Source: Alphaproteobacteria bacterium (GTDB lineage: Bacteria; Pseudomonadota; Alphaproteobacteria; Rhizobiales; JAKIUO01). Taken from it: a stretch of 41,277 bases of DNA. The translations under genes were made by a program, and so were the position numbers. The stretch lies in contig JAJRPI010000038.1 of assembly GCA_024280895.1 (NCBI GenBank), forward strand, positions 1-41,277. Reading direction: 5' to 3'. The notes beneath the pieces are model-generated. The model was not told the origin of the DNA, ran no database searches, and saw only the letters and a program-made list of their open reading frames with translations. Positions 1-33,747 of the stretch are shown here, one piece after another (the stretch's first letter is position 1; every line of letters begins with the position of its first letter).

Positions 1-1
1 A

Positions 2-48
2 GGTGGGCCACCTCTCCCCAACGAGAGGCTAACTATCTGGAAGGATAG
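2..48 (+). promoter_or_regulatory. Structured 5' leader of serC (candidate serC RNA motif)
   Basis: Two hairpins precede serC. One has a 6-bp stem (CCTCTC 11-16 with GAGAGG 23-28). The second (CTATC 33-37 with GATAG 44-48) holds the Shine-Dalgarno region GGAAGG in its loop and 3' arm, a few bases from the ATG at 55. A further palindrome, GGTGG-G-CCACC (2-12), overlaps the 5' arm of the first hairpin and could compete with it. A serC RNA motif with this position is known from alphaproteobacteria; that this is a member is inferred from layout only. The leader may begin before the window. Confidence 0.5.
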
Positions 49-54
49 ACATCT

Positions 55-3951: not shown

Positions 3952-4806
3952 TTATTTGTCAGCGGATGCGATCCAGGTGGTGCCGGTCATGCGCAAGTGA
4001 TCGCCCTGCTTGAGACCATCGGCGGTTTGTATGACCTGTGCGATATACTCAGCTCGAGCTGTTTCTTCCAACTGACTAACCAACGCCATGATCGGCGCAG
4101 CCAGATCCGAGATGGCATCCCAATAGGCTTGACCATCTGCCACTTCCAGCACGTCAAGTTCGAGTTCCTCCAAAACAATATTGCCAAAGCCTGCTGATGC
4201 GATGACATCGCGCAAGCGGTCTGGGTCAGCAAGCGCGAAGATCCCCGGCGTGCCAGGTGGCGGCACCGGTACATCCATATAGTTGGCCAATGTTTGCACT
4301 AGCAGACCAACAAATGGATTTTTTTCAGGTGCGGCCCAACAAGCCAGACTGAGGCGACCATTTTCCTTGAGCGCCGCACGGGCGGGCACCAAACAATCTC
4401 CCGGTTGGGGCATGAACATCAGTCCCCAGCGGATAGTCACCGCATCAACGGTGCCAGGCGCAACATCAAGAGTTTCAGCATCGCTACATATAAATTCAAT
4501 ATTGTGAAGCCCTGCCAGTGCCGCTTTATCGCGGGCCACCGCAAGCATTTCATCAGCTAGATCAATGCCAACAACCCGCCCTGTCTCACCGGCAATCTTT
4601 GCAGCTGTGATAGCAGGCTCTCCAGTCCCCGAGGCAATATCAAGAACATGGCTGCCAGGTTTGATCTGCGCAAGTTCAAGCATACGCTTTGTGACGGGTG
4701 CCGCTCCTTTTCTCAGCAATTCATCACGCCGCCGCCAACCCTTGGCCGCCGCTGCCCATTGATCATGCTGGATCTGCTTCATCGCGGCATTTTCTGAAAC
4801 TGTCAT
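3952..4806 (-). CDS. Class I SAM-dependent methyltransferase
   Basis: A 284-residue soluble methyltransferase of the UbiE/Methyltransf_11 type. Motif I is 'HVLDIASGTGEPAITAAK' (about residues 53-70), followed by the acidic loop 'VVGIDLADEML' and motif 'TVDAVTIRWGLMFMPQPGDC'. The C-terminal third ('FALADPDRLRDVIASAGFGN') is the substrate-cap region common in these proteins. The substrate cannot be told from sequence; ubiquinone-type, lipid and small-molecule acceptors all occur in the family. ATG at 4806 is preceded by GGGAG (4813-4817). It stands alone between convergent and divergent gaps, so no operon partner helps. Confidence 0.85.
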   Translation of the reverse strand: MTVSENAAMKQIQHDQWAAAAKGWRRRDELLRKGAAPVTKRMLELAQIKPGSHVLDIASGTGEPAITAAKIAGETGRVVGIDLADEMLAVARDKAALAGLHNIEFICSDAETLDVAPGTVDAVTIRWGLMFMPQPGDCLVPARAALKENGRLSLACWAAPEKNPFVGLLVQTLANYMDVPVPPPGTPGIFALADPDRLRDVIASAGFGNIVLEELELDVLEVADGQAYWDAISDLAAPIMALVSQLEETARAEYIAQVIQTADGLKQGDHLRMTGTTWIASADK

Positions 4807-16920: not shown

Positions 16921-18132
16921 GTGACAGCAAGCATGACAAAGGCAGAACAAGAAGAAATTCACCCCTTGGACAGTGAAAACAACAAGGTCTGGCTATCGCG
17001 CTTGCGGCTGACCGATTTTCGCAATTACCAACATCTCTCCATCGACCTTGATGGACGCCCCGTTGTGCTCACTGGCGAAAACGGCGCTGGCAAAACCAAT
17101 CTGCTCGAGGCCATTTCTCTACTATCTCCAGGACGCGGCATGCGCGGCACGCCGTTCAACGACCTTGCCCGCTTTGATGGCTCTGGCTTATGGGCTGTTT
17201 CCGCCCAGCTGGAAGGCCCTGACGGCCAGATTAATATTGGTACTGGCTTGGAGCTTTCTCCAGAGGGACAACAGGTATCGGGACGCATTGTCAAAGTGGA
17301 TGGCCACCCTGTCAAAGGATCAGGCAAACTGGCTGATCTGGCGCAGATTGTCTGGCTGACCCCTGCCCTTGATGGCCTGTTCACCGGTCCAGCTTCCGAG
17401 CGCCGGCGCTTTCTCGATCGATTGATCGTCGGGCTCGACCCCGGATTTCGCGCGCTCAGCGGCCAGTTCGAGCGCGCCATGCGCCAGCGCAACAAACTGC
17501 TCGATAGTGGCTCAAATGATCGCACCCAGTTCACCGGCCTTGAGACCTTAATGGCCGAAACGGGCGCCGCACTGGCTGCTACCCGGCTCGAAGCCGTTGA
17601 CCGCCTTGCCCATGCGGTGATTAGCAAATGGCCACAAGCTACAAAAGATGGGGCACCAAGCCCCTTTCCCTGGTCAACCCTGACGCTTGAAGGCGAATTA
17701 GAGCATGATTTGCGCATCATGCCCTCATCTGATGCCGAAGATCACTATCTGCGCGCCCTGCAAGATAATCGCGAACGTGACCGCGCCGCCAAACGCACCC
17801 TCATTGGCCCCCATCGCTCCGACTTTCTAGCGGGCCACGGCCCCAAGAAAATGCCAGCAAAATTTTGCTCCACCGGGGAACAAAAAGCCCTGCTTGTGGG
17901 GCTTATTCTGGCCCATGCTGAATTGCTGAAAGATCAGCATGGCACCGCGCCAATCATCCTGCTTGACGAGATTTCCGCCCATCTAGACCAAACCCGCCGC
18001 GAAGCCCTGTTCGAAGAGATATTATCCCTTTCATCTCAAGCATTTATGACAGGAACGGACACTGATATTTTTTCCCCTTTTGGGCATGGTGCACAGTTCT
18101 ATTCTCTCAACAATGCTGCTATAGTCTCCTGA
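16921..18132 (+). CDS. recF: DNA replication/repair protein RecF
   Basis: SMC-like ATPase that loads RecA at single-strand gaps together with RecO and RecR. It has the N-terminal 'LRLTDFRNYQHL', Walker A 'LTGENGAGKTNLLEA', ABC signature-like 'FCSTGEQKALLVG' and Walker B 'PIILLDEISAHLD'. At about 400 residues it is somewhat longer than the E. coli protein. The first possible start is GTG 16921, eight bases after dnaN; ATG 16933 is an equally good choice and gives 'MTKAEQEE'. Neither has a strong ribosome site, consistent with coupling to dnaN. Confidence 0.95.
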   Translation: MTASMTKAEQEEIHPLDSENNKVWLSRLRLTDFRNYQHLSIDLDGRPVVLTGENGAGKTNLLEAISLLSPGRGMRGTPFNDLARFDGSGLWAVSAQLEGPDGQINIGTGLELSPEGQQVSGRIVKVDGHPVKGSGKLADLAQIVWLTPALDGLFTGPASERRRFLDRLIVGLDPGFRALSGQFERAMRQRNKLLDSGSNDRTQFTGLETLMAETGAALAATRLEAVDRLAHAVISKWPQATKDGAPSPFPWSTLTLEGELEHDLRIMPSSDAEDHYLRALQDNRERDRAAKRTLIGPHRSDFLAGHGPKKMPAKFCSTGEQKALLVGLILAHAELLKDQHGTAPIILLDEISAHLDQTRREALFEEILSLSSQAFMTGTDTDIFSPFGHGAQFYSLNNAAIVS

Positions 18133-23041: not shown

Positions 23042-24673
23042 TTAACCTGTAACGATCGCGTGCAATTTATCACCCTGACCTTCAGCCTTCAAGGTCAACT
23101 CGTCATGATTTACGCCATTGTCGCCAATCAGTAATGAGAGAACGCTGTTGACAGTCGTCAGCGTCTCGATATCCGTTACGCCAGCACTTGGATCTTGTAT
23201 ACCAGCTCCCTCACCATGTTCGACACGCGCCGTATCGATTTCATTCCTGAGCTGGGACAAAAGCGTATTAATTCTTTCCGAAGAAGGATTTGGCTGAACG
23301 CGGGGCTCTACTAACAGGTGTCGCATTTTCATTTGTTCACCATTCAGATCGACAACATCGCTCTTCAACTCATGCAAAAGACCGTGAATATTCTGGACTT
23401 GTGAACTAAAAGCCAACTCGACAGACTTCATTTGCTCATCTTTGAGGTTTTCAATATCCTCTTTGAGGCTGCTGAGGATCGGATTAATATCGCTAGCCGC
23501 CCCGCTGGAAGGTTTGTCGAGCGTTTCAAAATTAATTTTCTTTAGTTCAGAGAATTCACCCTGGAGTTCAACAAACATTTCCAGGATCGCATTGTCTGAT
23601 ACCATCGAATTTCTTGTTTGCTCTGCTTTAAGCTCACGGATTTCAGCTTTCAATTCGGCAAAAAGACCGATGAGTTCACTTTCGCTCGAAAGAGCGGCGT
23701 TCTCTTGATCTCTCCTGACAATCGAAATATCCGCCTTAAGCTCAGCCAAAAGCCCAAGCAACTCGCTATCTTCACGAACAGATGGCGATTTCTGCTCTGC
23801 TTTCAGAGCAGAAACATCTGCCTTCAATTCGGACAATAAAGCATGAACGTCACCAGAGCTATCGATGGATGGGCGCGCCTGCCCCTCTTTGAGTGCTGAA
23901 ATTTCACCCTTTAATTCGCTCAGAAGGCTTAGCACCTCCCCTTGCTCAATCGTCGAGCGCTGAATTTCTTCTTCCCTCAACGAGGCATAATCTTTAGGGG
24001 TATCAGTAACAAATTCACGCCGCTTTTGCCTGAAATTTTCGACCTTGAAAGATCGATTATCACTGAGCTCAGAATTTTCTCGTTGCGATATTGCCTTTTG
24101 TGAATCGGATGCAGTTTCGCCAACAGCTTCAATAGAAATTTGATCCGCCTTCAGATAAGGTTCACCCAACTGACTGCCTGCTGGAGCCTTTGAACCGCTC
24201 CGTATAGGGGGTTCTTTGCCAAAAAGACCTGAAAGATCACCACGAAGTCCGGACAAACTTTCATCCTCATCGCCTTCAGGTATTCTCTCTTCACGAGCGG
24301 TCTCTTCTTTAAGGCTGGCAATATCGTTTCTAAGTTTGTCGAGAAGATCGTGGTCCGCATCATCAACAGCAATTTCAGCCGCCAAAACTCGGGATTCCGT
24401 ATTTTCTTCATTTTTCCAGGAACCGATTTGATTTCTCAGATCACTCAAGCCCTGATGATCTGCGACACTCTCGGCGATGATTAGCTTGCGTGCCTGTAAT
24501 ACACTGTCTGTCCGGCTAGTCCCCATTGTATCTGGACCAAAATTTTTCAGTCGCTCAATACGTTCGGCTCGTTCTTTATTGAGTTTTCCAAAAAAAGAAA
24601 TTTTTCCAAAAAGTGACGGACTATTCTGTGATCCCTCGGGCTTTTCCGATATGCGCTGTCCAAAATTTCTCAT
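23042..24673 (-). CDS. Repeat-containing coiled-coil protein, unknown function
   Basis: I do not recognise this 543-residue acidic, soluble protein. It has no signal peptide or membrane segment. From about residue 240 to 490 a unit of roughly 29 residues repeats about eight times, each with a core like 'LLSELKGEISALKEGQ', 'LLSELKADVSALKAEQ', 'LLAELKADISIVRRDQ', 'LFAELKAEIRELKAEQ', 'ILSSLKEDIENLKDEQ', 'LLHELKSDVVDLNGEQ'. Three more diverged copies lie in the N-terminal part ('LLDKLRNDIASLKEE', 'LSGLRGDLSGLFGKE'). The heptad-like spacing predicts coiled coil interrupted by Ser/Pro linkers. The next gene upstream carries the same motif. ATG 24673 follows GGGGA; a TTG at 24679 is less likely. A structural or scaffold role is a guess. 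Confidence 0.75.
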   Translation of the reverse strand: MRNFGQRISEKPEGSQNSPSLFGKISFFGKLNKERAERIERLKNFGPDTMGTSRTDSVLQARKLIIAESVADHQGLSDLRNQIGSWKNEENTESRVLAAEIAVDDADHDLLDKLRNDIASLKEETAREERIPEGDEDESLSGLRGDLSGLFGKEPPIRSGSKAPAGSQLGEPYLKADQISIEAVGETASDSQKAISQRENSELSDNRSFKVENFRQKRREFVTDTPKDYASLREEEIQRSTIEQGEVLSLLSELKGEISALKEGQARPSIDSSGDVHALLSELKADVSALKAEQKSPSVREDSELLGLLAELKADISIVRRDQENAALSSESELIGLFAELKAEIRELKAEQTRNSMVSDNAILEMFVELQGEFSELKKINFETLDKPSSGAASDINPILSSLKEDIENLKDEQMKSVELAFSSQVQNIHGLLHELKSDVVDLNGEQMKMRHLLVEPRVQPNPSSERINTLLSQLRNEIDTARVEHGEGAGIQDPSAGVTDIETLTTVNSVLSLLIGDNGVNHDELTLKAEGQGDKLHAIVTG

Positions 24674-24999
24674 TCCCAATTCCCCAAATAAAAATACTTG
24701 TCACGCCAATTCATACTGCCGTTCAGTCGCTTGATCAGGCATGCACTAGCAGATTTGCCACTATGAAAATAGCAAAAGAAAACTAAGATTAGATTGAGAT
24801 ATCCCTAACTATCTACTTGAAATTATTAATGATTAATTTTTTACTAAGACGTATATTCTTGAATAGAACAGCCCTTAAATAGGATAATCCTACCGGCCCA
24901 GAGCTGGTTAGCCCCAAAGACAAAAAAAGGAAAACCTACCCGGCCTCCCTTCTTCTCATTTGTCATACTTCCATCAATACCAAAATGCGCTGGTGCAAT
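24674..24999. other. Gap between the two repeat-protein genes
   Basis: About 325 bp, A/T-rich in the middle (24780-24880). I see no gene, no clear terminator and no perfect promoter. The length suggests the two genes are transcribed separately or have an internal promoter. Confidence 0.5.
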
Positions 25000-26664
25000 T
25001 TAGCCAGGAGTGCGCCGAAGTTCGGCAAGGCGCTTGGCAGCGGCCTGATGCCCTTGTCTGGCAGCTGAATAATACAACACCTTGGCACGCGTCAGATCGG
25101 GCTCAACACTTAGCACGCTAGCCATATTAGCAAGATGTAACGGATCGAACGTTTGAGCAAGCTTGTAGGCAGCTTCAGCGCTTTGCTGGCTCATGGCATA
25201 TTCAAGCATCTGCCTTGCCGACACAAGATCACCAAGCTCGATCAGATTGGCGGCATCTGCCAATAGAGCCTTAACTTCATCTGACTCAAGCTTTGGTCGT
25301 TTGACAACGATCTTGGGAAGCGCCGGTGGTCGGGCCGGAGCGACGGCAGCCACTTTTACTTTTGGTTTTTCTTTTACTGCTTTGCGAGCAGTCACAACTG
25401 CAACTCTCTTCGCGCTCGCAGCAGCCTCCAAAGCGGCCACTTTCTGGCTGTTCTCTTTTTGTAATCCCAGCAAGGCCAACAGGTTTTCATTGTTCTGGTC
25501 ATTAATGCTATTGGCATAATATATACCACCAGCCGTCGCGCCGCCCACCAGTGCAAGCAGCCCAACTGTCATCAAGAAAGCTTGACCAACCGAGGTTCTA
25601 CGGCCTCCTCGAGGCGAATTGTAAAAGGTTTTCAGGCTGTCATTTTCCTGGCGAAGGCCTGAAATATCACCCTGCAACTGGGCCAGCAATCCCGAAAGCT
25701 CGCCTCCGCCGCCTGGCACTTTATTACGAAGCGTATCATTTTCCTGACGAAGACCTGCAATATCTCCTTGCAGCTGATTCAACAGCAAGGTCACTTCCGC
25801 CCCCTGCCCGGCCATCACTGTGGGAACTTTATATTGCACTTTCAAAGTGTCATTTTCGGACCGCAGAGCCGAGATATCCCCTTGTAATTCGGCCAGCAAT
25901 GTCTGCACTTCTGGAGCAGCAGAATCAATCACTGACGGCATATTGAACTTCTCACGTGCCGACAAATTACCTTTTTCAAGCGAGCTAATGTCAGATTTCA
26001 ACTGGTTCAGCAAATCGGCAATCGTCGAACCGGTAGCAGCGGCAACAACACTCGTCGTCGCGGCCAAGCTGCTCTCACCATCGGCGGCAGACTCATTGGA
26101 TTGCGATATATCCTGCTCATCGTCCGTCAGCAGTGGCAAAAGGTCGGAGATCGCATTGCTGGCAACTTCATTCTTACTGTCTTGAGGTGCCGGCGTAATT
26201 AAGGCTCTTGAGGGAACAGGTTTCGCTTCGAGTGGATTAACTGGCGCGGCCGCAGCTAGCGGATTAACTGGCACGGCCGCAGCTATTGGCGGCTGTATCT
26301 CGGCGGGCTCCACTTCTTCTTCATATTCCTCACCAATCACAGCCATGATAGACTGCAAGCCTTGCGTGACGGTCGAGCCCTCATCTTGCTGAAGCCTGGC
26401 AGCATCGATCTTGTCTGTCAGCTTTGAAGCCGAGGCAGCATTGATTGGAGGCGTTGGCATTGCAGCCTTGTCAGGACCTCCACTAACAGAAGGATCATAA
26501 TTATCGCCAATAACTGCCATCACTGATTGCAACCCTTGGGCAACAGCTGGGGTGGCAGCGGCAGCAGCAACATCGCGCGCCTTGGCTGCATCGGGATGAC
26601 CAATGCCAGCCTTTGGATTTTTGGGCGGCTCGTTTGACGAACCCCTTTTTGTACTGTCACTCAT
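25000..26664 (-). CDS. Membrane-anchored repeat protein with Sel1/TPR-like C-terminus
   Basis: A 554-residue protein with four visible parts. (1) A disordered Ala/Pro-rich N-terminus has a duplicated peptide ('GLQSVMAVIGDNYDPSV' and 'GLQSIMAVIGEEYEEEV') and a short tandem 'VNPLAAAAPVNPLEAKP'. (2) Residues of about 215-340 hold four copies of the LLxxLxxDIxxLRxEN motif ('LLAELQGDISALRSEN', 'LLNQLQGDIAGLRQEN', 'LLAQLQGDISGLRQEN') shared with the downstream gene. (3) A single membrane helix 'FLMTVGLLALVGGATAGGIYY' follows at about 365-385. (4) A Lys/Ala-rich stalk leads to a Sel1/TPR-like tail ('ALLADAANLIELGDLVSA', 'DLTRAKVLYYSAARQGHQAA'). This places the repeats in the cytoplasm and the tail in the periplasm. 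GGGAG precedes ATG 26664. Function unknown. Confidence 0.78.
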   Translation of the reverse strand: MSDSTKRGSSNEPPKNPKAGIGHPDAAKARDVAAAAATPAVAQGLQSVMAVIGDNYDPSVSGGPDKAAMPTPPINAASASKLTDKIDAARLQQDEGSTVTQGLQSIMAVIGEEYEEEVEPAEIQPPIAAAVPVNPLAAAAPVNPLEAKPVPSRALITPAPQDSKNEVASNAISDLLPLLTDDEQDISQSNESAADGESSLAATTSVVAAATGSTIADLLNQLKSDISSLEKGNLSAREKFNMPSVIDSAAPEVQTLLAELQGDISALRSENDTLKVQYKVPTVMAGQGAEVTLLLNQLQGDIAGLRQENDTLRNKVPGGGGELSGLLAQLQGDISGLRQENDSLKTFYNSPRGGRRTSVGQAFLMTVGLLALVGGATAGGIYYANSINDQNNENLLALLGLQKENSQKVAALEAAASAKRVAVVTARKAVKEKPKVKVAAVAPARPPALPKIVVKRPKLESDEVKALLADAANLIELGDLVSARQMLEYAMSQQSAEAAYKLAQTFDPLHLANMASVLSVEPDLTRAKVLYYSAARQGHQAAAKRLAELRRTPG

Positions 26665-28214: not shown

Positions 28215-31200
28215 TCAACTGCCCTTCTTGCCCAGCAGCTTGCCCAGCAGTTTTGATTTCAGCGGACTTTTCTCGCGCTTGCGTATTTTGGCTTCTTCAT
28301 CAAACAAGTCCCACAAATTGGTTCCTTCTGTTTGATGGGTCTGTTCTCCAAGAACAGCCAGTTCAAATTCGGATTTAGGCTGAAACAAAACCGGATCTTT
28401 CATAGATTCCAAATCCACCTCGATCGCCACCAGATTGCTGCGTGCCCGCTGCACCCAGGGATGAGCCTCGGGCAATTGACGTTCCAATATTTCCAGCGCC
28501 CGACGTGCGTAAGGTTCCGCCTCATCACAGCGCCCCGATATCTTCAACAATAATGAAAGATTATTGAAGTCCCGGGCAATCGTATGATGCTCAAGGCCAA
28601 AATTGTTCTCGTCAATTTTCAAGGCACGGCGATATAGTGTTTCCGCCTCGTCAAAGCGTTCGGTCTCGCGCAATAGATCGGCGAGGTTATTGAGCGTCGT
28701 TGCCACATTTTGATGTTCGGGCCCAAGGGTTTTTTCAAAAATATCGATGACCCGGCGCATCGCTGGCTCGGCCTCTTTCAGGCGATTGGTCGCCTTCAGC
28801 AGCAAGGCAAGATTATTGAGATCGCGCGCCACACTTGGATGATTTGGCCCATAGTAAAGCTCATCAATCCGTAAAGCGCGGCGTTTCAATATTTCCGATT
28901 GCCCATATTCACCTCGGTTCTCTTCAAGTAATACAGCAAGATTATTGAGATTGGCCGCAATATCTGGATGATCTGGCCCAAGCGTGCGTTCATCAATCAA
29001 CAATACTTTATGAAACAAGGGTTCAGCCTCAACATGGCGGTCAAGGGTCACAAGCAGTTTGGCCAAAGCTTCCATGTCGCGCGCCACATAAGGATGCTTT
29101 TCGCCATAAAAACTTTTATCGATGGCCAGAGCACGGCGATAGAGGGGCTCCGCATCCGCCCCTTGATCGCTTTGCTCATATAACTGCCCCATGCTATTGA
29201 GAATAATAGCAATATTGACATGGTTGCGGCCGAAATTTTTAACATTTATCTGCAAGGAACGATGATACAGGGCCTCTACATCATCGTCACGGCCCATGGC
29301 CTGAAACAATTGTCCAAGGTTAAACAAATCGCGCGCCACATTGCCATGATGGCGCCCCTTGCGATTTTCGTCGATTTTGAGCGCTTCCATAAACAAGGGT
29401 TCCGCCTCAAACAAGACCTCCTTGTCCTGTAACGTCGCGGCCAGATTATTAAGCGATATGGCAACATTTTCATGATTGTCACCATAGGTGATTTTATTGA
29501 TCTCAAGGCCTCGACGCAGGAGTTTTTCCGCCTCATCCACATCTCCGCGCGCCTTTAAAAACAGGCCTGCCTGATTAAGTAGAATGGCCACTTCGCGCCC
29601 GCCCATACCGGCTTTTTGCTGCGCTGATTTCGGCATTGAAAGCTCACCATTTTCGGGGATATGCTCAAACAGGGCCATGGCATGAGGCAAAAGCTGCTCG
29701 CAACGCGGCCAGGAAGCGGCGACACCAGGATCATTTTCTTCCCCTGCCCCACCTGGAAAAGCTTCTGCAAGCAGTCCGGTCGCCAATCCCGCCATCGCAT
29801 CATCATGGCTTTCTTCAGCAAGCCGTGCGCGCATCATTTCTTGCACAAGCCAATGAACGCGCAAGCCGGGTTCGCCGCCCTGCATCTCCACCTGCGTCAA
29901 CAATCCCATATCAACGAGCGCTATGATCACATCCGCCAGATCTTTTGGATCTATGGAAAAAATGATCGGGGCTGCAGCAGTAGTCTCATCGCCATCAAAA
30001 AGGGCAATAGAGCGGCTTACATGGCTATTGAAATTGCGCGATGAATGAGAACAGGTTGTACTGGAAGCCGACAGCGTCCCTGGGAAAGTTGGCAACGAGA
30101 CCTGAAACAGATCAAGAGGAATATTGTCGGGGGCATAAAAAGCCATGACGCCCATAAGAATGGATGCCAAAGGCAGCGGCCCGACATTGTTTTCAATATC
30201 GCCCTTTACGATCGCATCAAGGGCCAGATTAAAGGCCACATACAAACTGTCAGAATGTTTCCACGGCACGTCAACAAGGCGAGGGCGCTCGCTCATCATC
30301 ACATTGAACATTTTATGATAAGCATTCAATCGCAGATTACGGGTCTTGCAATAGCTCCCAGCCAGCCTCAACGAAAGTGGCAGATAGCCAAGTTCACTGG
30401 CCAGGCCACTCGCCAGTTCAGGATCATTTTCTCCCGACAGATTACCCAGATACCAAACAGCAAGTTCCGGCGAAAAAACATCAACATCGACTTTTTGGTG
30501 ATAACCGTAAAGATCAGCCCAACGGGTGGTAATCAAAACTTCGGCACCCTCGCGCGGCACCAGATTTTCCAGTTCGCGATTAGTTGCCACATTATCGTAA
30601 ATCAACAGCCACGGCTTATCATAGGGCCGCGTCTCAAGCGCTTCAATTACCATTTTGGCGGCACCTTCGCGGCTCTCAATCGCATGCACGGGCGGCGACA
30701 GGCGTTCACCCAGATCGATCAGCCCTTGAACAATGCTGGAGCGATCGCCAGCCGAAATCCACCAGACACCGGTATAGTTTGCCCGTTGACGCCAGGCGAA
30801 CTCGCGCGCCAGGGTCGATTTGCCAATACCGGCCAATCCGCTGTCGCCCTTGGCGACTTCTTGCGTATTGCTCAAAATGGTTGGTGTCCCGGGCTTGGGC
30901 GCACTTGCTCCCGTCATCTCGGTAATCAGATTATTACGACCGGTAAACCAGCGGTCATAATGAATTTCAGGATGCAGGATCGTGGTTTTGACCAAGTGAT
31001 TTCCCTGCGGCAAGGGCGGCATAAAATCAAGCCGCGCCTTATTGCTGGAACCCAGCGTTTTAAGCACGGTCTCGGCAACTTTGCGGGCATCTTGCTGCTG
31101 CAAAATAGGCACGAGGTCGGTAAAGGCGATATTTGCCAGCTTTCCGCTGGCCCGGCAACTGTCAACCCGGAACATGATCAAGCGCTGCTTTTTGTTGAGC

Positions 31201-31466
31201 GGATCGCCTTTAATGACCTCATGGGCTTCTCGCAAGCAGGCTTCATTGCTCAAAAATTCGCTCGATAAAAGGGCCACCATTTTTGTCTGGCCCTCAAGCG
31301 CGTCCTCGATCAGGTGCAAGAAATCTTGATGCTGATAGAACTCGTCCTGCAAGGTGATTGTACGCCCCTGCATTTCGATCAGGCCAGCAATCCACGCAGC
31401 GAGGTCTTTGTTCTCAACCGCACGTGAGATAACAAAATCTGAATATGTGCTTTTTTCGTGGAGCAT
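28215..31466 (-). CDS. TIR-NB-ARC-TPR protein (NLR-like STAND ATPase, candidate anti-phage)
   Basis: A 1083-residue multidomain protein. Residues 8-115 form a TIR domain ('DFVISRAVENKDLAAWIAGL', 'LLSSEFLSNEACLREAHEV'); E80 fits the catalytic glutamate of NADase TIRs. Residues of about 170-420 form an NB-ARC/STAND NTPase: Walker A 'GLAGIGKSTLA' (210-220), Walker B 'WLLIYDNV' (286-293), 'VLITTRWADL' (310-319) and 'LGYLPLSLRLAG' (the GLPL-like motif). A winged-helix-like part follows ('GLRVHWLVQEMMRARL', 535-550). From about 623 to 1015 there are about nine 42-residue TPRs of the kinesin-light-chain type ('NNLAxLLxxxxxxxEAEPL..RAL.ID'). In the STAND model TPRs sense, NB-ARC oligomerises and TIR degrades NAD; this is inference here. 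ATG 31466. Confidence 0.88.
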   Translation of the reverse strand: MLHEKSTYSDFVISRAVENKDLAAWIAGLIEMQGRTITLQDEFYQHQDFLHLIEDALEGQTKMVALLSSEFLSNEACLREAHEVIKGDPLNKKQRLIMFRVDSCRASGKLANIAFTDLVPILQQQDARKVAETVLKTLGSSNKARLDFMPPLPQGNHLVKTTILHPEIHYDRWFTGRNNLITEMTGASAPKPGTPTILSNTQEVAKGDSGLAGIGKSTLAREFAWRQRANYTGVWWISAGDRSSIVQGLIDLGERLSPPVHAIESREGAAKMVIEALETRPYDKPWLLIYDNVATNRELENLVPREGAEVLITTRWADLYGYHQKVDVDVFSPELAVWYLGNLSGENDPELASGLASELGYLPLSLRLAGSYCKTRNLRLNAYHKMFNVMMSERPRLVDVPWKHSDSLYVAFNLALDAIVKGDIENNVGPLPLASILMGVMAFYAPDNIPLDLFQVSLPTFPGTLSASSTTCSHSSRNFNSHVSRSIALFDGDETTAAAPIIFSIDPKDLADVIIALVDMGLLTQVEMQGGEPGLRVHWLVQEMMRARLAEESHDDAMAGLATGLLAEAFPGGAGEENDPGVAASWPRCEQLLPHAMALFEHIPENGELSMPKSAQQKAGMGGREVAILLNQAGLFLKARGDVDEAEKLLRRGLEINKITYGDNHENVAISLNNLAATLQDKEVLFEAEPLFMEALKIDENRKGRHHGNVARDLFNLGQLFQAMGRDDDVEALYHRSLQINVKNFGRNHVNIAIILNSMGQLYEQSDQGADAEPLYRRALAIDKSFYGEKHPYVARDMEALAKLLVTLDRHVEAEPLFHKVLLIDERTLGPDHPDIAANLNNLAVLLEENRGEYGQSEILKRRALRIDELYYGPNHPSVARDLNNLALLLKATNRLKEAEPAMRRVIDIFEKTLGPEHQNVATTLNNLADLLRETERFDEAETLYRRALKIDENNFGLEHHTIARDFNNLSLLLKISGRCDEAEPYARRALEILERQLPEAHPWVQRARSNLVAIEVDLESMKDPVLFQPKSEFELAVLGEQTHQTEGTNLWDLFDEEAKIRKREKSPLKSKLLGKLLGKKGS

Positions 31467-31752
31467 TTATATCCGAACTTCCTTGCAAAGGACCATTATT
31501 CTTTTAAGAAAAAGAACCGATATTGGCTTTTGCAAGTCCGGCTCTTGTCACATTTTAATTCAAGATCAAAAACAGGTTTCCACTTTCAAAGCCCAGCTTA
31601 GTCCAGCAGCATCGAAAAAGCAGAAAATAATCTGGATCCCCCTTCATCCCAACAAAATACACACCACAAACAAAACCATCGATTGCACTTGGCGTGAATA
31701 GTCATTAGCGATCAATTAGATCCAAATTCTGTCCTTTTTGCATTAAATTCTA
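31467..31752. other. Gap between the ParA pair and the TIR gene
   Basis: About 285 bp, A/T-rich, without a convincing gene. It should hold the promoter of the TIR-NLR gene (minus strand): AAGGAAG lies about 13 bases before the ATG at 31466. I cannot identify a clear -35/-10 pair. Confidence 0.45.
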
Positions 31753-32118
31753 TTATTCGACGTAGTTGCGCGTTCTTGTTTCCGCAAAAGCCCTGCCGAT
31801 TTCCTGTTCATTTGTCGGGCAAAGCGCCAAGGCAATCTTGATAGCCTCAGCCAAATCAACCTGCTCACCGGTCTGACGGCGAACAAGTTCCATAATTTTC
31901 TCGCCATATTGCCGATCAACGCCATCAAGTGTCACGCTAATTTCTCGTTTCTCCCCACCCAGCTGCTCCAAAGGCTCGTCTTCATCATCGTCGAACAGCC
32001 CCGACAGAATATCTTCTGGATCCGGCCCGGTATCCTTTTGTGGAACGCGCGTCTTTAGCGCCTCAAACAAAGCATCATCCATATCTGTGGTTCGATTGAG
32101 GCGCTTTTGCTTTGCCAT
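31753..32118 (-). CDS. Small acidic partner protein of the ParA-like ATPase
   Basis: I do not recognise this 121-residue protein. It has a basic start ('MAKQKRLNRT'), a very acidic middle ('LFDDDEDEPLEQL'), and a C-terminal part with one predicted strand ('EISVTLDGVD') followed by two helices ('EKIMELVRRQTG', 'DLAEAIKIALAL'). That strand-helix-helix order resembles a ribbon-helix-helix DNA-binding fold (tentative). It lies 26 bp downstream of the ParA-like gene, with GGAG well spaced before its ATG, so the two form an operon like small plasmid-type partition cassettes in which a RHH protein replaces ParB. Confidence 0.65.
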   Translation of the reverse strand: MAKQKRLNRTTDMDDALFEALKTRVPQKDTGPDPEDILSGLFDDDEDEPLEQLGGEKREISVTLDGVDRQYGEKIMELVRRQTGEQVDLAEAIKIALALCPTNEQEIGRAFAETRTRNYVE

Positions 32119-32144
32119 AAAAACTCCGAATTCGGGTTATGCCG

Positions 32145-32726
32145 CTATTTTGGTGTGGATACGATATCATAGACAACCTGGGAGAGCTCCAGTCTTGCAG
32201 CATTGCCAAGCGCCGCATACCCCTGCAGAAAGAGATATTCATAGTCAGACATGTAGGACAGATGGTGTGGCAAAGGTGTGCCGCCGACCTTGGCAGCTTT
32301 CTCCATCAGATTCTGGGAATGACCCTTGCGCTGATCGACATGATTAAACAAAAGATAGAGCGGCAGATCGGGCCGGCAATATTTAGTCAGATATTCGATG
32401 GTCTCCTGGGTACTCAACAGATTGGGCGGGGCTGTCTTGGTGACCATGACAACCCGATCCGAGATATCAGCGGCCTTGACCTGCTTTTTATTGAGATTTG
32501 GAGCCGTATCGATCAGCACATAATCAAAGCCCTTGGCTTTTGTGGTGATTTCGATATTGGTCTGGTTGTTGGCTCGCAGATAATATAAAAACCGAGTGCT
32601 CGTTTTCTGGCTATCCATATCGATAATACCAACACGCTCACCAGCGCGCTCCAATGTCAGAGCAACACCCAATGTGACACTGGTTTTGCCAACACCACCC
32701 TTTTGATTCATAAATGAAATAATCAT
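32145..32726 (-). CDS. ParA/MinD-like ATPase
   Basis: A 193-residue P-loop ATPase with the deviant Walker A motif 'MNQKGGVGKTSVTLG' at residues 7-21, the motif 'GIIDMDSQKTST' (usually DxDPQ) and 'YVLIDTAPNLNKKQ' (Walker B). It is short for chromosomal ParA and lacks an N-terminal DNA-binding extension, like the small ParA proteins of type Ib plasmid partition or of cargo-positioning systems. It is the first gene of a two-gene operon with the small acidic protein. The ribosome site is weak. A TATAGT -10-like box exists upstream on the minus strand but no clear -35. No parS-like iterons are evident. Confidence 0.85.
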   Translation of the reverse strand: MIISFMNQKGGVGKTSVTLGVALTLERAGERVGIIDMDSQKTSTRFLYYLRANNQTNIEITTKAKGFDYVLIDTAPNLNKKQVKAADISDRVVMVTKTAPPNLLSTQETIEYLTKYCRPDLPLYLLFNHVDQRKGHSQNLMEKAAKVGGTPLPHHLSYMSDYEYLFLQGYAALGNAARLELSQVVYDIVSTPK

Positions 32727-32943: not shown

Positions 32944-33747
32944 TCACAGATGCCTGCCAAGGTCGGTGATATTCACAGATTTACCGTTAAGGGGATTATT
33001 CTTGTCCCAGCCGTAATTGATGGTGGTAAAACGCGGGGCCAATGCGTCATAAATCATCAAGCGGCCAATCAATCCATCTCCAAGCCCGATCAGCTCCTTT
33101 AAAACCTCCATCGCAGCCAGCGTTCCCATGACCCCGACCACCGCTCCAAGGATACCTGTTTGCGAACAATTAGGGACACTATCGTCGCTTGGCGCTTTAG
33201 GAAACAGGCAGCGATAGCTGGGATTTGGATCGCCCGTCGGCCCATTTTCAAACGGTTTAAACAGGCTCAATTGCCCATCGAATGGGCCAACAGCGGCAGA
33301 AACCAGCGGTTTTTTGGCCAAAAAACAGGCATCATTGACGAGATAACGCGTCGCAAAATTATCTGACCCATCTACCACAAGATCAAATTGTTGCAATATT
33401 TCCAAAGCATTTTGTGCATCGAACCGCACTTGATGGGCAATCACCTTTACATGGGGGTTGATACGTTCAATCGCCTTTGTGGCGCTCAATGTTTTGGCGG
33501 ACCCCACCAGATCGGTTGCGTGAATGATTTGGCGCTGAAGATTGGACAAAGACACCACATCATCATCGATAATACCGAGCGTTCCGACCCCAGCCGCTGC
33601 CAGATAGCAAAGAACCGGCGACCCCAGCCCCCCTGCTCCCACAACGAGCACACGAGCTTTTTGAAGTTTTTGTTGTCCAGGGCCGCCTACATCCTTGAGA
33701 ATCAAATGGCGCTTGTAGCGGCTTATTTCCTCATCTGAAAACGACAT
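32944..33747 (-). CDS. moeB: HesA/MoeB/ThiF-family E1-like adenylyltransferase
   Basis: E1-like enzyme that adenylates the C-terminal glycine of a ubiquitin-like sulfur carrier (MoaD, ThiS or a cysteine-synthesis carrier). The 267-residue product has 'RYKRHLILKDVGGPGQQKL', the nucleotide site 'VLVVGAGGLGSPVLCYLAAAG', 'DDDVVSLSNLQRQIIH' and 'DLVVDGSDNFATRYLVNDAC', all standard. The structural zinc site is degraded: CYRC is 'SYRC', and the later CPxC is 'NPLN', leaving one of four cysteines. The gene starts at the base after the cysK stop (TAA 33750-33748, ATG 33747), so the two are coupled. The symbol moeB is by similarity; the true carrier is unknown. Confidence 0.82.
   Translation of the reverse strand: MSFSDEEISRYKRHLILKDVGGPGQQKLQKARVLVVGAGGLGSPVLCYLAAAGVGTLGIIDDDVVSLSNLQRQIIHATDLVGSAKTLSATKAIERINPHVKVIAHQVRFDAQNALEILQQFDLVVDGSDNFATRYLVNDACFLAKKPLVSAAVGPFDGQLSLFKPFENGPTGDPNPSYRCLFPKAPSDDSVPNCSQTGILGAVVGVMGTLAAMEVLKELIGLGDGLIGRLMIYDALAPRFTTINYGWDKNNPLNGKSVNITDLGRHL

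What the first reader, a model, noticed from the sequence alone, without database searches (positions are those of the whole stretch)
28215..31466. TIR-NB-ARC-TPR protein with an intact catalytic glutamate and P-loop
One gene joins a TIR domain (E80 at the NADase position in 'SNEACLREA'), a complete NB-ARC/STAND NTPase and about nine kinesin-light-chain-type TPRs. This is the architecture of plant and animal innate-immune receptors and of bacterial NLR-related anti-phage proteins. All key motifs are intact, so it is likely active. I recognise the domains but not a named defence family with exactly this layout.
Basis: partly seen in the sequence, partly recalled or inferred. Interest (0 to 1): 0.7.

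Follow-up and report, generated by a model that had tools for sequence, protein, structure and literature searches.

The report
Origin-linked bacterial immune-receptor look-alike gene
A bacterial gene built like plant immune receptors (a TIR signalling domain, an ATP-driven switch and a sensor made of repeats) sits at one fixed chromosomal place and changes about as slowly as core replication genes, so it looks more like a settled gene of its genus than a mobile phage-defence gene.

Summary
The gene is real: minus strand, 28215-31466, 1083 aa, TIR_2 + NB-ARC + nine kinesin-light-chain-type TPRs. E80 and the P-loop are invariant in five of five orthologs. Two inferences need correction. (1) 'All key motifs intact' fails at one place: the aromatic residue four before E80 (WxxxE motif) is Ala in four and Thr in one ortholog; 30 of 39 other Glu-bearing TIRs examined have W/Y/F there. 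NADase activity, above all cyclic-ADPR production, is therefore uncertain. (2) It does not evolve like a mobile defence gene: it is in all five held genomes of the genus, in the same gene order (one assembly is broken there), near dnaA/dnaN/gyrB, with dN/dS about 0.03-0.04. Its dN is 11th lowest of 58 sampled orthologs, next to DnaA. A 41%-identical paralog is intact in one genome, a remnant in another and absent from its place in a third. The architecture is known (plant TNPs, bacterial TIR-NB-TPR). NCBIfam would call it FxSxx_TPR, but no FxsB passed its cut-off in five genomes. New variant of a known kind; function untested.

The parts
28215..31466 (-). TIR-NB-ARC-TPR gene, 1083 aa (called TNP here), stop codon included
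   Evidence: ORF and translation; Pfam; five genomes
31110..31436 (-). TIR_2 domain, residues 11-119
   Evidence: Pfam E 2.1e-11; same place; a profile of eight TIRs (four of this genus, four others) matches solved TIRs
31227..31229 (-). codon of E80, the NADase-position glutamate
   Evidence: invariant in five of five orthologs
31239..31241 (-). codon of A76, position of the missing WxxxE aromatic
   Evidence: A in four orthologs, T in one; W/Y/F in 30 of 39 other Glu-bearing TIRs
30309..30842 (-). NB-ARC domain, residues 209-386
   Evidence: Pfam E 2.4e-7
30813..30839 (-). P-loop GLAGIGKST, residues 210-218
   Evidence: G210, G213, G215, K216 and S217 invariant in five orthologs
29907..30056 (-). 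Ser/Thr-rich fast-evolving loop, residues 471-520
   Evidence: 21 of 50 positions invariant against 824 of 1060 for residues 1-1060; dN 0.05-0.38
28455..29591 (-). nine kinesin-light-chain-type TPRs, residues 626-1004
   Evidence: Pfam TPR_12; KLC1 by sequence and fold
28218..28436 (-). C-terminal tail after the TPRs, residues 1011-1083, basic end
   Evidence: translation; dN 0.030-0.212, above the TPR value in each of four pairs
31467..31752 (-). 286-bp spacer upstream of the gene, suggesting its own transcription unit (inference)
   Evidence: ORF coordinates; the aligned upstream stretch of about 350 nt, which includes the end of p121, is 71-77% identical in three orthologs and 43% in G003
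31753..32118 (-). p121, fast-evolving 121-aa neighbour without a family; link to the gene not shown
   Evidence: 48-60% identical in orthologs; strong matches only in the genus
32145..32726 (-). small ParA-type ATPase, 193 aa; link to the gene not shown
   Evidence: Pfam and NCBIfam, below the NF041546 cut-off; 89-97% in the genus, the best-scoring matches elsewhere in the order 30-36% over about 100 residues

Best explanation
It is an NLR-type molecular switch that has become a core gene of one uncultured alphaproteobacterial genus. Inferred mechanism: the nine-TPR array holds the protein inactive and recognises a constant ligand; binding lets the NB-ARC domain exchange ADP for ATP and assemble an oligomer; this brings TIR domains together, and they cleave NAD+ (probably giving linear ADP-ribose rather than the cyclic isomer) and arrest the cell. 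Shown here: architecture, motif residues, fixed syntenic place, strong purifying selection on TIR, NB-ARC and TPR alike, and absence of the WxxxE aromatic. Inferred: ligand, oligomerisation, enzymatic output and purpose. The conservation suggests a constant trigger, either a host-cell signal or a near-invariant phage protein.
For: Domains and motif residues invariant in 5 of 5 orthologs. A TIR profile, half of whose rows come from this genus, matches solved bacterial and plant TIRs that I recall as NADases: AbTir (2.9e-5), PdTIR (5.8e-5), RPP1 (2.8e-4). Present in all 5 held genomes of the genus; same gene order in four, the fifth consistent but broken by a contig end. dN/dS 0.027/0.70, 0.020/0.73 and 0.043/1.01 against three species; TIR dN 0.003-0.031, TPR dN 0.015-0.031 in those three. 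dN 11th lowest of 58 sampled orthologs, 25 of them from this window. The plant TNP ZmTNP-IIa, of the same architecture, causes cell death through its TIR catalytic site and P-loop (PMC9806590, passages). AbTir W204, the WxxxE tryptophan, is essential there and needed for 2'cADPR (PMC11374754, passages), hence the linear-product guess.
Against: The Glu also occurs in TIRs without reported activity (PMC7075850), and with A/T at the WxxxE position the TIR could be a scaffold; in TcpC the Trp is present but not needed, so its absence cannot be read with certainty either way. The same TIR profile matches TLR and MyD88 TIRs with better E-values than the NADases, and the window protein alone matched no solved TIR at E <= 0.001. 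Structure models are weak (pLDDT 56 and 60); no Foldseek match of the TIR model reached E 0.001 and no VIA match Z 5, so the pocket could not be examined. No ligand, partner or phenotype is known.
Confidence: 0.5

Rival explanations
1. An anti-phage NLR of the ordinary kind (Avs-like logic): TPRs bind a conserved phage protein, NB-ARC oligomerises, TIR depletes NAD+, infected cells die. Vertical conservation would reflect recognition of an invariant phage feature.
For: Relatives of the same architecture on plasmids, one near a restriction endonuclease gene and one beside a DUF4231/SLATT gene; the paralog in this genus is patchy, as I expect of defence genes; five viral-contig loci encode remote relatives, one of them (L126) from the TIR end on.
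Against: Present in all five held genus genomes, fixed place beside origin genes, dN like DnaA; no phage-record match; no convincing defence genes among 23 window proteins scanned with PADLOC; WxxxE aromatic absent.
Confidence: 0.27
2. A regulator whose TIR is a scaffold and not an enzyme: NB-ARC-TPR is an AfsR/MalT-like signalling ATPase and the TIR only drives assembly.
For: WxxxE aromatic absent; low TIR_2 score, 44.8 bits against 76 in the paralog, 121 in the Prosthecochloris and 70 in the Methylobacterium relative; E75 also occurs in TIRs without reported activity.
Against: E80, S14, D21, E42, S68 and F71 invariant in five orthologs; no DNA-binding domain among the Pfam matches.
Confidence: 0.17
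3. It is the FxsT component of an FxSxx-COOH peptide system.
For: NCBIfam NF040586 337.9 bits, above its 300 cut-off; such systems do encode a TIR-AP-ATPase beside the peptide-processing genes (PMC7159879, passages).
Against: FxsB radical SAM enzyme: 0 of 5 genus genomes over the cut-off, best 28.9 bits against 370; 4 of 5 have weak matches, as do 11 of 14 control genomes. No radical SAM gene among the window proteins scanned. Plasmid relatives called fxsT lie beside other genes.
Confidence: 0.03
4. parA, p121 and this gene form one module that arrived together, perhaps from an integrated plasmid, with ParA/p121 positioning the receptor.
For: All three are adjacent and, as close relatives, confined to this genus among 61 genomes; parA resembles plasmid ParA proteins distantly (about 25-30%); relatives of the receptor occur on plasmids; fetched TAXI loci of seven outgroup genomes lack all three.
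Against: Genus restriction is weak evidence, since the family shows only this genus in the search; p121 evolves fast while the other two do not; 286-bp gap before the receptor gene; p121 has no plasmid match at E <= 0.01.
Confidence: 0.15

Closest known systems
Plant TNP proteins (TIR-NBARC-TPR; XTNX), e.g. ZmTNP-IIa
   Same: Same domain order; TIR catalytic site and P-loop; [quoted passage not shown]
   Different: That paper says the similarity of selected bacterial proteins to TNPs lies in the nucleotide-binding domain, not TIR or TPR. I did not compare plant sequences.
Bacterial TIR-NB-ARC-TPR proteins annotated fxsT (Prosthecochloris pPAES01 WP_012509576.1; Methylobacterium pVL1_5 WP_207184165.1)
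   Same: 35% and 28% identity over 92% of the query; TIR_2 and TPRs in both, NB-ARC by Pfam in the first only, a P-loop ATPase match in the second.
   Different: On plasmids, near recombinase and restriction genes or a SLATT-type gene; Tyr at the WxxxE position.
Same-genus paralog, 877 aa, G002:C93 (L044)
   Same: TIR_2, STAND-type NTPase and TPRs; 41% identical in the alignment.
   Different: Intact in one genome, remnant in another, absent from its place in a third; Tyr at the WxxxE position; beside a membrane protein with a sub-threshold SLATT_3 match.
FxSxx-COOH system TPR protein (NCBIfam NF040586)
   Same: Scores above the curated cut-off.
   Different: No FxsB over its cut-off in five genus genomes.
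Avs and other bacterial NLR-related defence proteins (recalled; bacterial NLR-like proteins that sense phage proteins through TPRs are mentioned in PMC9806590, passages)
   Same: STAND-type NTPase with C-terminal repeats as probable sensor.
   Different: No Avs model of PADLOC matches; N-terminal TIR.

Membership tests
TIR-NB-ARC-TPR (NLR-like) proteins | N-terminal TIR, central NB-ARC, C-terminal TPRs in one chain | tested here: met
   Pfam above cut-offs
TIR-NB-ARC-TPR (NLR-like) proteins | NB-ARC motif residues (P-loop, Walker B, TTR, GLPL, MHD-like) | tested here: met
   present and invariant in five orthologs; nucleotide binding itself not tested
TIR NADases | Glu in the alpha-C helix | tested here: met
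   E80 invariant, in helix 75-87 after strand 62-68 of a low-confidence model
TIR NADases | WxxxE aromatic | tested here: not met
   A/T in five of five orthologs; present in 30 of 39 others, so common but not universal
TIR NADases | fold match to TIR NADases around the pocket | tested here: inconclusive
   Foldseek's first five rows are TIRs but no row has E <= 0.001; no VIA match with Z >= 5
TIR NADases | NAD+ cleavage | not testable with these tools
   needs an enzyme assay
FxSxx-COOH system (FxsT) | NF040586 over the curated cut-off | tested here: met
   337.9 against 300 bits
FxSxx-COOH system (FxsT) | FxsB radical SAM enzyme in the genome | tested here: not met
   0 of 5 genomes over the cut-off; none of the 14 control genomes passed it either, so there was no positive control
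FxSxx-COOH system (FxsT) | FxSxx-COOH peptide and metallopeptidase genes | not tested
   not searched
Known anti-phage systems (PADLOC) | match to a specific defence model | tested here: not met
   only a generic TPR model, E 4.3e-5
Mobile defence genes | patchy presence, variable place, mobile context | tested here: not met
   in all 5 held genus genomes, syntenic; dN like core genes
Anti-phage NLR | protection against phage | not testable with these tools
   needs phage plating

The most novel reading that the evidence does not exclude
An NLR-architecture protein (TIR-NB-ARC-TPR) has been domesticated as a housekeeping or developmental switch of a bacterial genus: fixed near the replication-origin genes, evolving like DnaA, with a TIR whose altered WxxxE motif marks a changed output (linear product, another nucleotide, or scaffold), and perhaps coupled to the adjacent ParA/p121 pair.
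Probability: 0.3. Interest if true: 0.75.

Novelty: new variant of a known kind. Interest (0 to 1): 0.48.

Why it matters
Bacterial NLR-like proteins are usually read as disposable, mobile phage defences. A member of that architecture under core-gene constraint is a natural case for asking whether such switches also serve ordinary bacterial physiology, and what a TIR does when the catalytic Glu is kept but the WxxxE aromatic is not. It also warns against calling defence from architecture alone, and shows the FxsT name applied to proteins without evidence of an FxSxx system.

Tried and rejected
FxSxx-COOH system: the family score is above cut-off but no FxsB passes its cut-off in five genomes. 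Not accepted as a membership; limits: no positive control, and the peptide and peptidase were not searched.

Amphipathic membrane helix at the C-terminus: hydrophobic moment at most 0.28 in the 14-residue windows from residue 1056 on, against about 0.7 for the best TPR helices. Dropped.

Structure: two AlphaFold jobs with shallow alignments (5 and 6 sequences) gave pLDDT 56 and 60. The order of strands and helices fits a TIR and E80 sits in the expected helix, but Foldseek gave no row with E <= 0.001, and in VIA-align the TIR rows do not stand out from unrelated rows, all with Z under 4. Inconclusive. NB-ARC folds did not appear among the 50 rows of the full-length VIA list, which the TPR region fills; that absence says nothing.

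Phage origin: no match in 50,697 phage records at E <= 1e-5. The viral-contig scan gave five remote loci from 241 candidate stretches.

p121 as a plasmid protein: no match at E <= 0.01. RNA element at the gene: the only Rfam match in the window at gathering scores is a serC leader at 1-53. tRNA-linked insertion: no tRNA in the window. Promoter/terminator scan: 11 promoter-like sites against a shuffle mean of 6.2 (sd 2.8) and 6 terminator-like against 4.9 (sd 2.2); not used.

Local defence context: PADLOC on 23 window proteins in all. Results against 'no defence context': the ThiF protein (32944-33747) matches 33 models, the 25 shown all E1-E2 (best 2.8e-23), in the E1 part only, and 3952-4806 matches mad2 (1.9e-22) over 126 residues. 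I take both as generic domain matches, because the ThiF gene abuts a PALP-family cysK-like gene and both matches are partial. The ParA protein had four weak matches (best 0.0018).

Literature: ten searches. In the listings I saw, which are capped, no title or abstract start reported a bacterial TIR-NB-ARC-TPR with a tested function or a core-gene pattern. The library lacks most subscription papers, so this is weak evidence of absence. Sections read in full: PMC7075850 sections 10 and 61. Passages only: PMC13142454, PMC9806590, PMC7159879, PMC8195603, PMC11374754, and further places of PMC7075850.

Rows dropped or doubtful: L079-L081 appear in the alignment but were not matched by the TIR query, and were not counted at the WxxxE position; L126 (Tyr there) was also not among the rows. 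In one search I kept loci with several matches (L248, L265, L266) and with doubtful register (L254, L258, L263, L264), so 30 of 39 is approximate. One search uses ORFs of at least 120 aa, chosen longest first, and counts only reciprocal best hits covering 70% of both.

Full report
Observation. The stretch 28215-31466 holds one open reading frame of 1083 aa, on the minus strand. Pfam finds TIR_2 at residues 11-119 (44.8 bits, cut-off 28), NB-ARC at 209-386 (30.7 bits, cut-off 23.5) and eight TPR_12 stretches (277 bits). Nine TPR units of 42-43 residues can be laid out from about 626 to 1004. Their nearest solved relatives are kinesin light chains, by sequence (E 3.3e-38) and by fold (KLC1, Z 23.8, 243 residues aligned, 3.6 A; other TPR proteins are tied with it).

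Motifs. E80 falls at the catalytic position: S68, F71 and E80 have the spacing of S63, F66 and E75 of the general TIR consensus (PMC7075850 section 10, read), and in the low-confidence TIR model E80 lies in the helix after the third strand. P-loop, Walker B Asp, TTR, GLPL-like and MHD-like His residues are present; all those checked are invariant in the five orthologs. One motif residue is not intact. In the WxxxE motif the aromatic four residues before the Glu is Ala in four orthologs and Thr in the fifth. I compared 41 other TIR matches: 34 from the 30 loci of a class-wide TIR_2 search (142 genomes; one locus is another TIR of the window's own genome) and seven relatives from the earlier searches. 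Of these 41, 39 keep the Glu, and 30 of the 39 have W (13), Y (9) or F (8) at that position; all seven relatives have Y or F. A few rows are probably out of register, so the share is approximate. In AbTir the corresponding Trp is essential for NADase activity and needed to make 2'cADPR; in TcpC it is present but not needed (PMC11374754, passages). E75 itself is also frequent in TLR1, 2, 6 and 10 (PMC7075850). Hence E80 alone does not show activity, and a linear product or a scaffold role is possible.

Distribution and place. In 61 genomes (own, 4 of the same genus, 56 of the same order) the full-length protein is in all five of the genus, the four others at 82-96% identity. Outside the genus only one match covers both TIR and NB-ARC (G040:C78, 33% over residues 9-465, cut by a contig end); the others are mostly TPR matches. 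A 423-residue N-terminal query gave matches in 14 of 289 class genomes and 16 of 398 phylum genomes, the own genome included in both; outside its own locus no match exceeded 37% identity over more than 100 residues. In G001, G002 and G004 the order dfp, cyt, DMT, cysK, thiF, parA, p121, TNP, TAXI, sel554 is the same as in the window, although G001 has no cc545 match before mdh and in G004 the DMT match is partial. In G003 cysK, thiF, parA, p121 and TNP are on one contig and TAXI, sel554 and cc545 on another, the break falling between TNP and TAXI; there TNP is cut after residue 1063. The window also carries dnaA, dnaN and gyrB, about 7 to 14 kb from the gene. In seven genomes of other families that have a TAXI relative, the stretches fetched hold no TNP, parA or p121 match at E <= 1e-6, and five of the seven have a sel554-like gene downstream; several of these contigs are short.

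Selection. Own Nei-Gojobori script: dN/dS of TNP is 0.027/0.70 (G001), 0.020/0.73 (G002), 0.043/1.01 (G004); G003 is near saturation (0.118/2.20). TIR, NB-ARC and TPR parts are all low (TPR dN 0.015-0.031 for the first three). The Ser/Thr-rich loop 471-520 is clearly faster (0.054-0.383) and the C-terminal tail mostly so (0.030-0.212); against G004 the NB-ARC (0.060) is close to the tail (0.067). dS is within the range of the neighbouring genes, so the low dN is constraint on the protein. In a sample of 14 stretches of the own genome (254,386 bases) against 81 stretches of G004 (1,085,601 bases), 58 reciprocal best pairs were found; TNP has the 11th lowest dN (0.043; median 0.116), near DnaN (0.031) and DnaA (0.039) and below the SMC_N protein at 16921 (0.060; RecF by its place, an inference). 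Among pairs of 300 residues or more it is 7th of 33. Twenty-five of the 58 pairs come from this window, so the sample leans towards the origin region.

An internal contrast. The genus has a second TIR-STAND-TPR gene, 41% identical to the first. It is intact in G002 (877 aa). In the window's genome only a 145-residue stretch is recognisable (77% identical; two stops inside the match). In G004 the flanking polysaccharide-synthesis membrane protein (Pfam in G002) is separated by about 65 bp from a shortened match to the SLATT-like neighbour. G001 and G003 show no further TIR or NB-ARC match to the query. This is how I would expect a dispensable conflict gene to behave; the gene of the finding does not behave so.

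Known kinds. NCBIfam NF040586 (FxSxx-COOH system TPR protein) scores above its cut-off, and a TIR-AP-ATPase gene does accompany FxSxx peptide-processing systems (PMC7159879, passages). But the FxsB family has no match over its cut-off in the five genomes (best 28.9 of 370 bits; weak matches in 4 of 5, and in 11 of 14 control genomes), and plasmid relatives called fxsT sit beside a recombinase gene near a restriction endonuclease gene or beside a DUF4231/SLATT_1 gene. The name describes sequence similarity, not the system. PADLOC gives the protein only a generic TPR match, and its matches among the other window proteins are partial and generic (told in full under Tried and rejected). The layout itself is published: plant TNPs, with bacterial TIR-NB-TPR proteins noted; maize ZmTNP-IIa causes cell death depending on its TIR catalytic site and P-loop (PMC9806590, passages).

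Neighbours. parA (193 aa) and p121 (121 aa) lie upstream on the same strand; their close relatives are likewise confined to the genus in the 61-genome set (one p121 match at E 0.003 in G012 is taken as chance). parA evolves slowly and p121 fast. A joint arrival or a functional link is possible but not shown: the search shows only this genus in its family, so genus restriction is weak evidence, and a 286-bp spacer separates p121 from TNP.

Mechanism. Most likely the protein works as NLRs do: TPR ligand sensing, nucleotide-driven assembly, TIR output. What is shown is anatomy and constraint. Ligand, assembly and output are inferred by analogy. I put 0.5 on an NLR-type switch with a nucleotide-cleaving TIR in a core role, 0.27 on ordinary phage defence, 0.17 on a scaffold TIR and 0.03 on an FxSxx system; the module idea (0.15) can overlap with any of them.

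Verdict. Observation confirmed; 'likely active anti-phage protein' only partly supported. New variant of a known kind, moderately interesting because of its core-gene evolution.

Noticed in passing
window 31753-32726: A slowly evolving 193-aa ParA-type ATPase beside a fast-evolving 121-aa protein without family; close relatives of both are confined to the genus in 61 genomes. Could be a small partition or positioning pair.
   Followed up: partly
window 23042-26664: Two long proteins (545 and 554 aa) share, by eye, repeated 'LLxELxxDIxxLRxEN'-like segments; the second lies beside a TAXI-type solute-binding gene, and a similar C-terminal part follows TAXI in 5 of 7 outgroup loci.
   Followed up: partly
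L045 5883-12225 (G000:C41) and L044 (G002:C93): A polysaccharide-synthesis membrane protein, a decayed or intact TIR-STAND-TPR gene and a weakly SLATT_3-like membrane protein form a conflict-type locus; beside it in G000 is a caspase-FGE protein.
   Followed up: partly
L078 2478-8805 (Methylobacterium indicum pVL1_5): Two genes annotated fxsT flank a DUF4231/SLATT_1 gene on a small plasmid, a possible two-receptor, one-pore arrangement.
   Followed up: no
G000: The window's 3.36 Mb genome has seven TIR_2 matches, joint highest in the 142-genome sample (G095 also seven); two of the seven are adjacent on one contig.
   Followed up: no
window 32944-33747 and 3952-4806: A ThiF protein beside a cysK-like gene resembles the E1 part of E1-E2 defence models, and 126 residues of a 284-aa protein resemble mad2; probably generic domains.
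   Followed up: no
window 1-53: Rfam serC leader (67.5 bits) at the very start of the window, before the ORF at 55.
   Followed up: no
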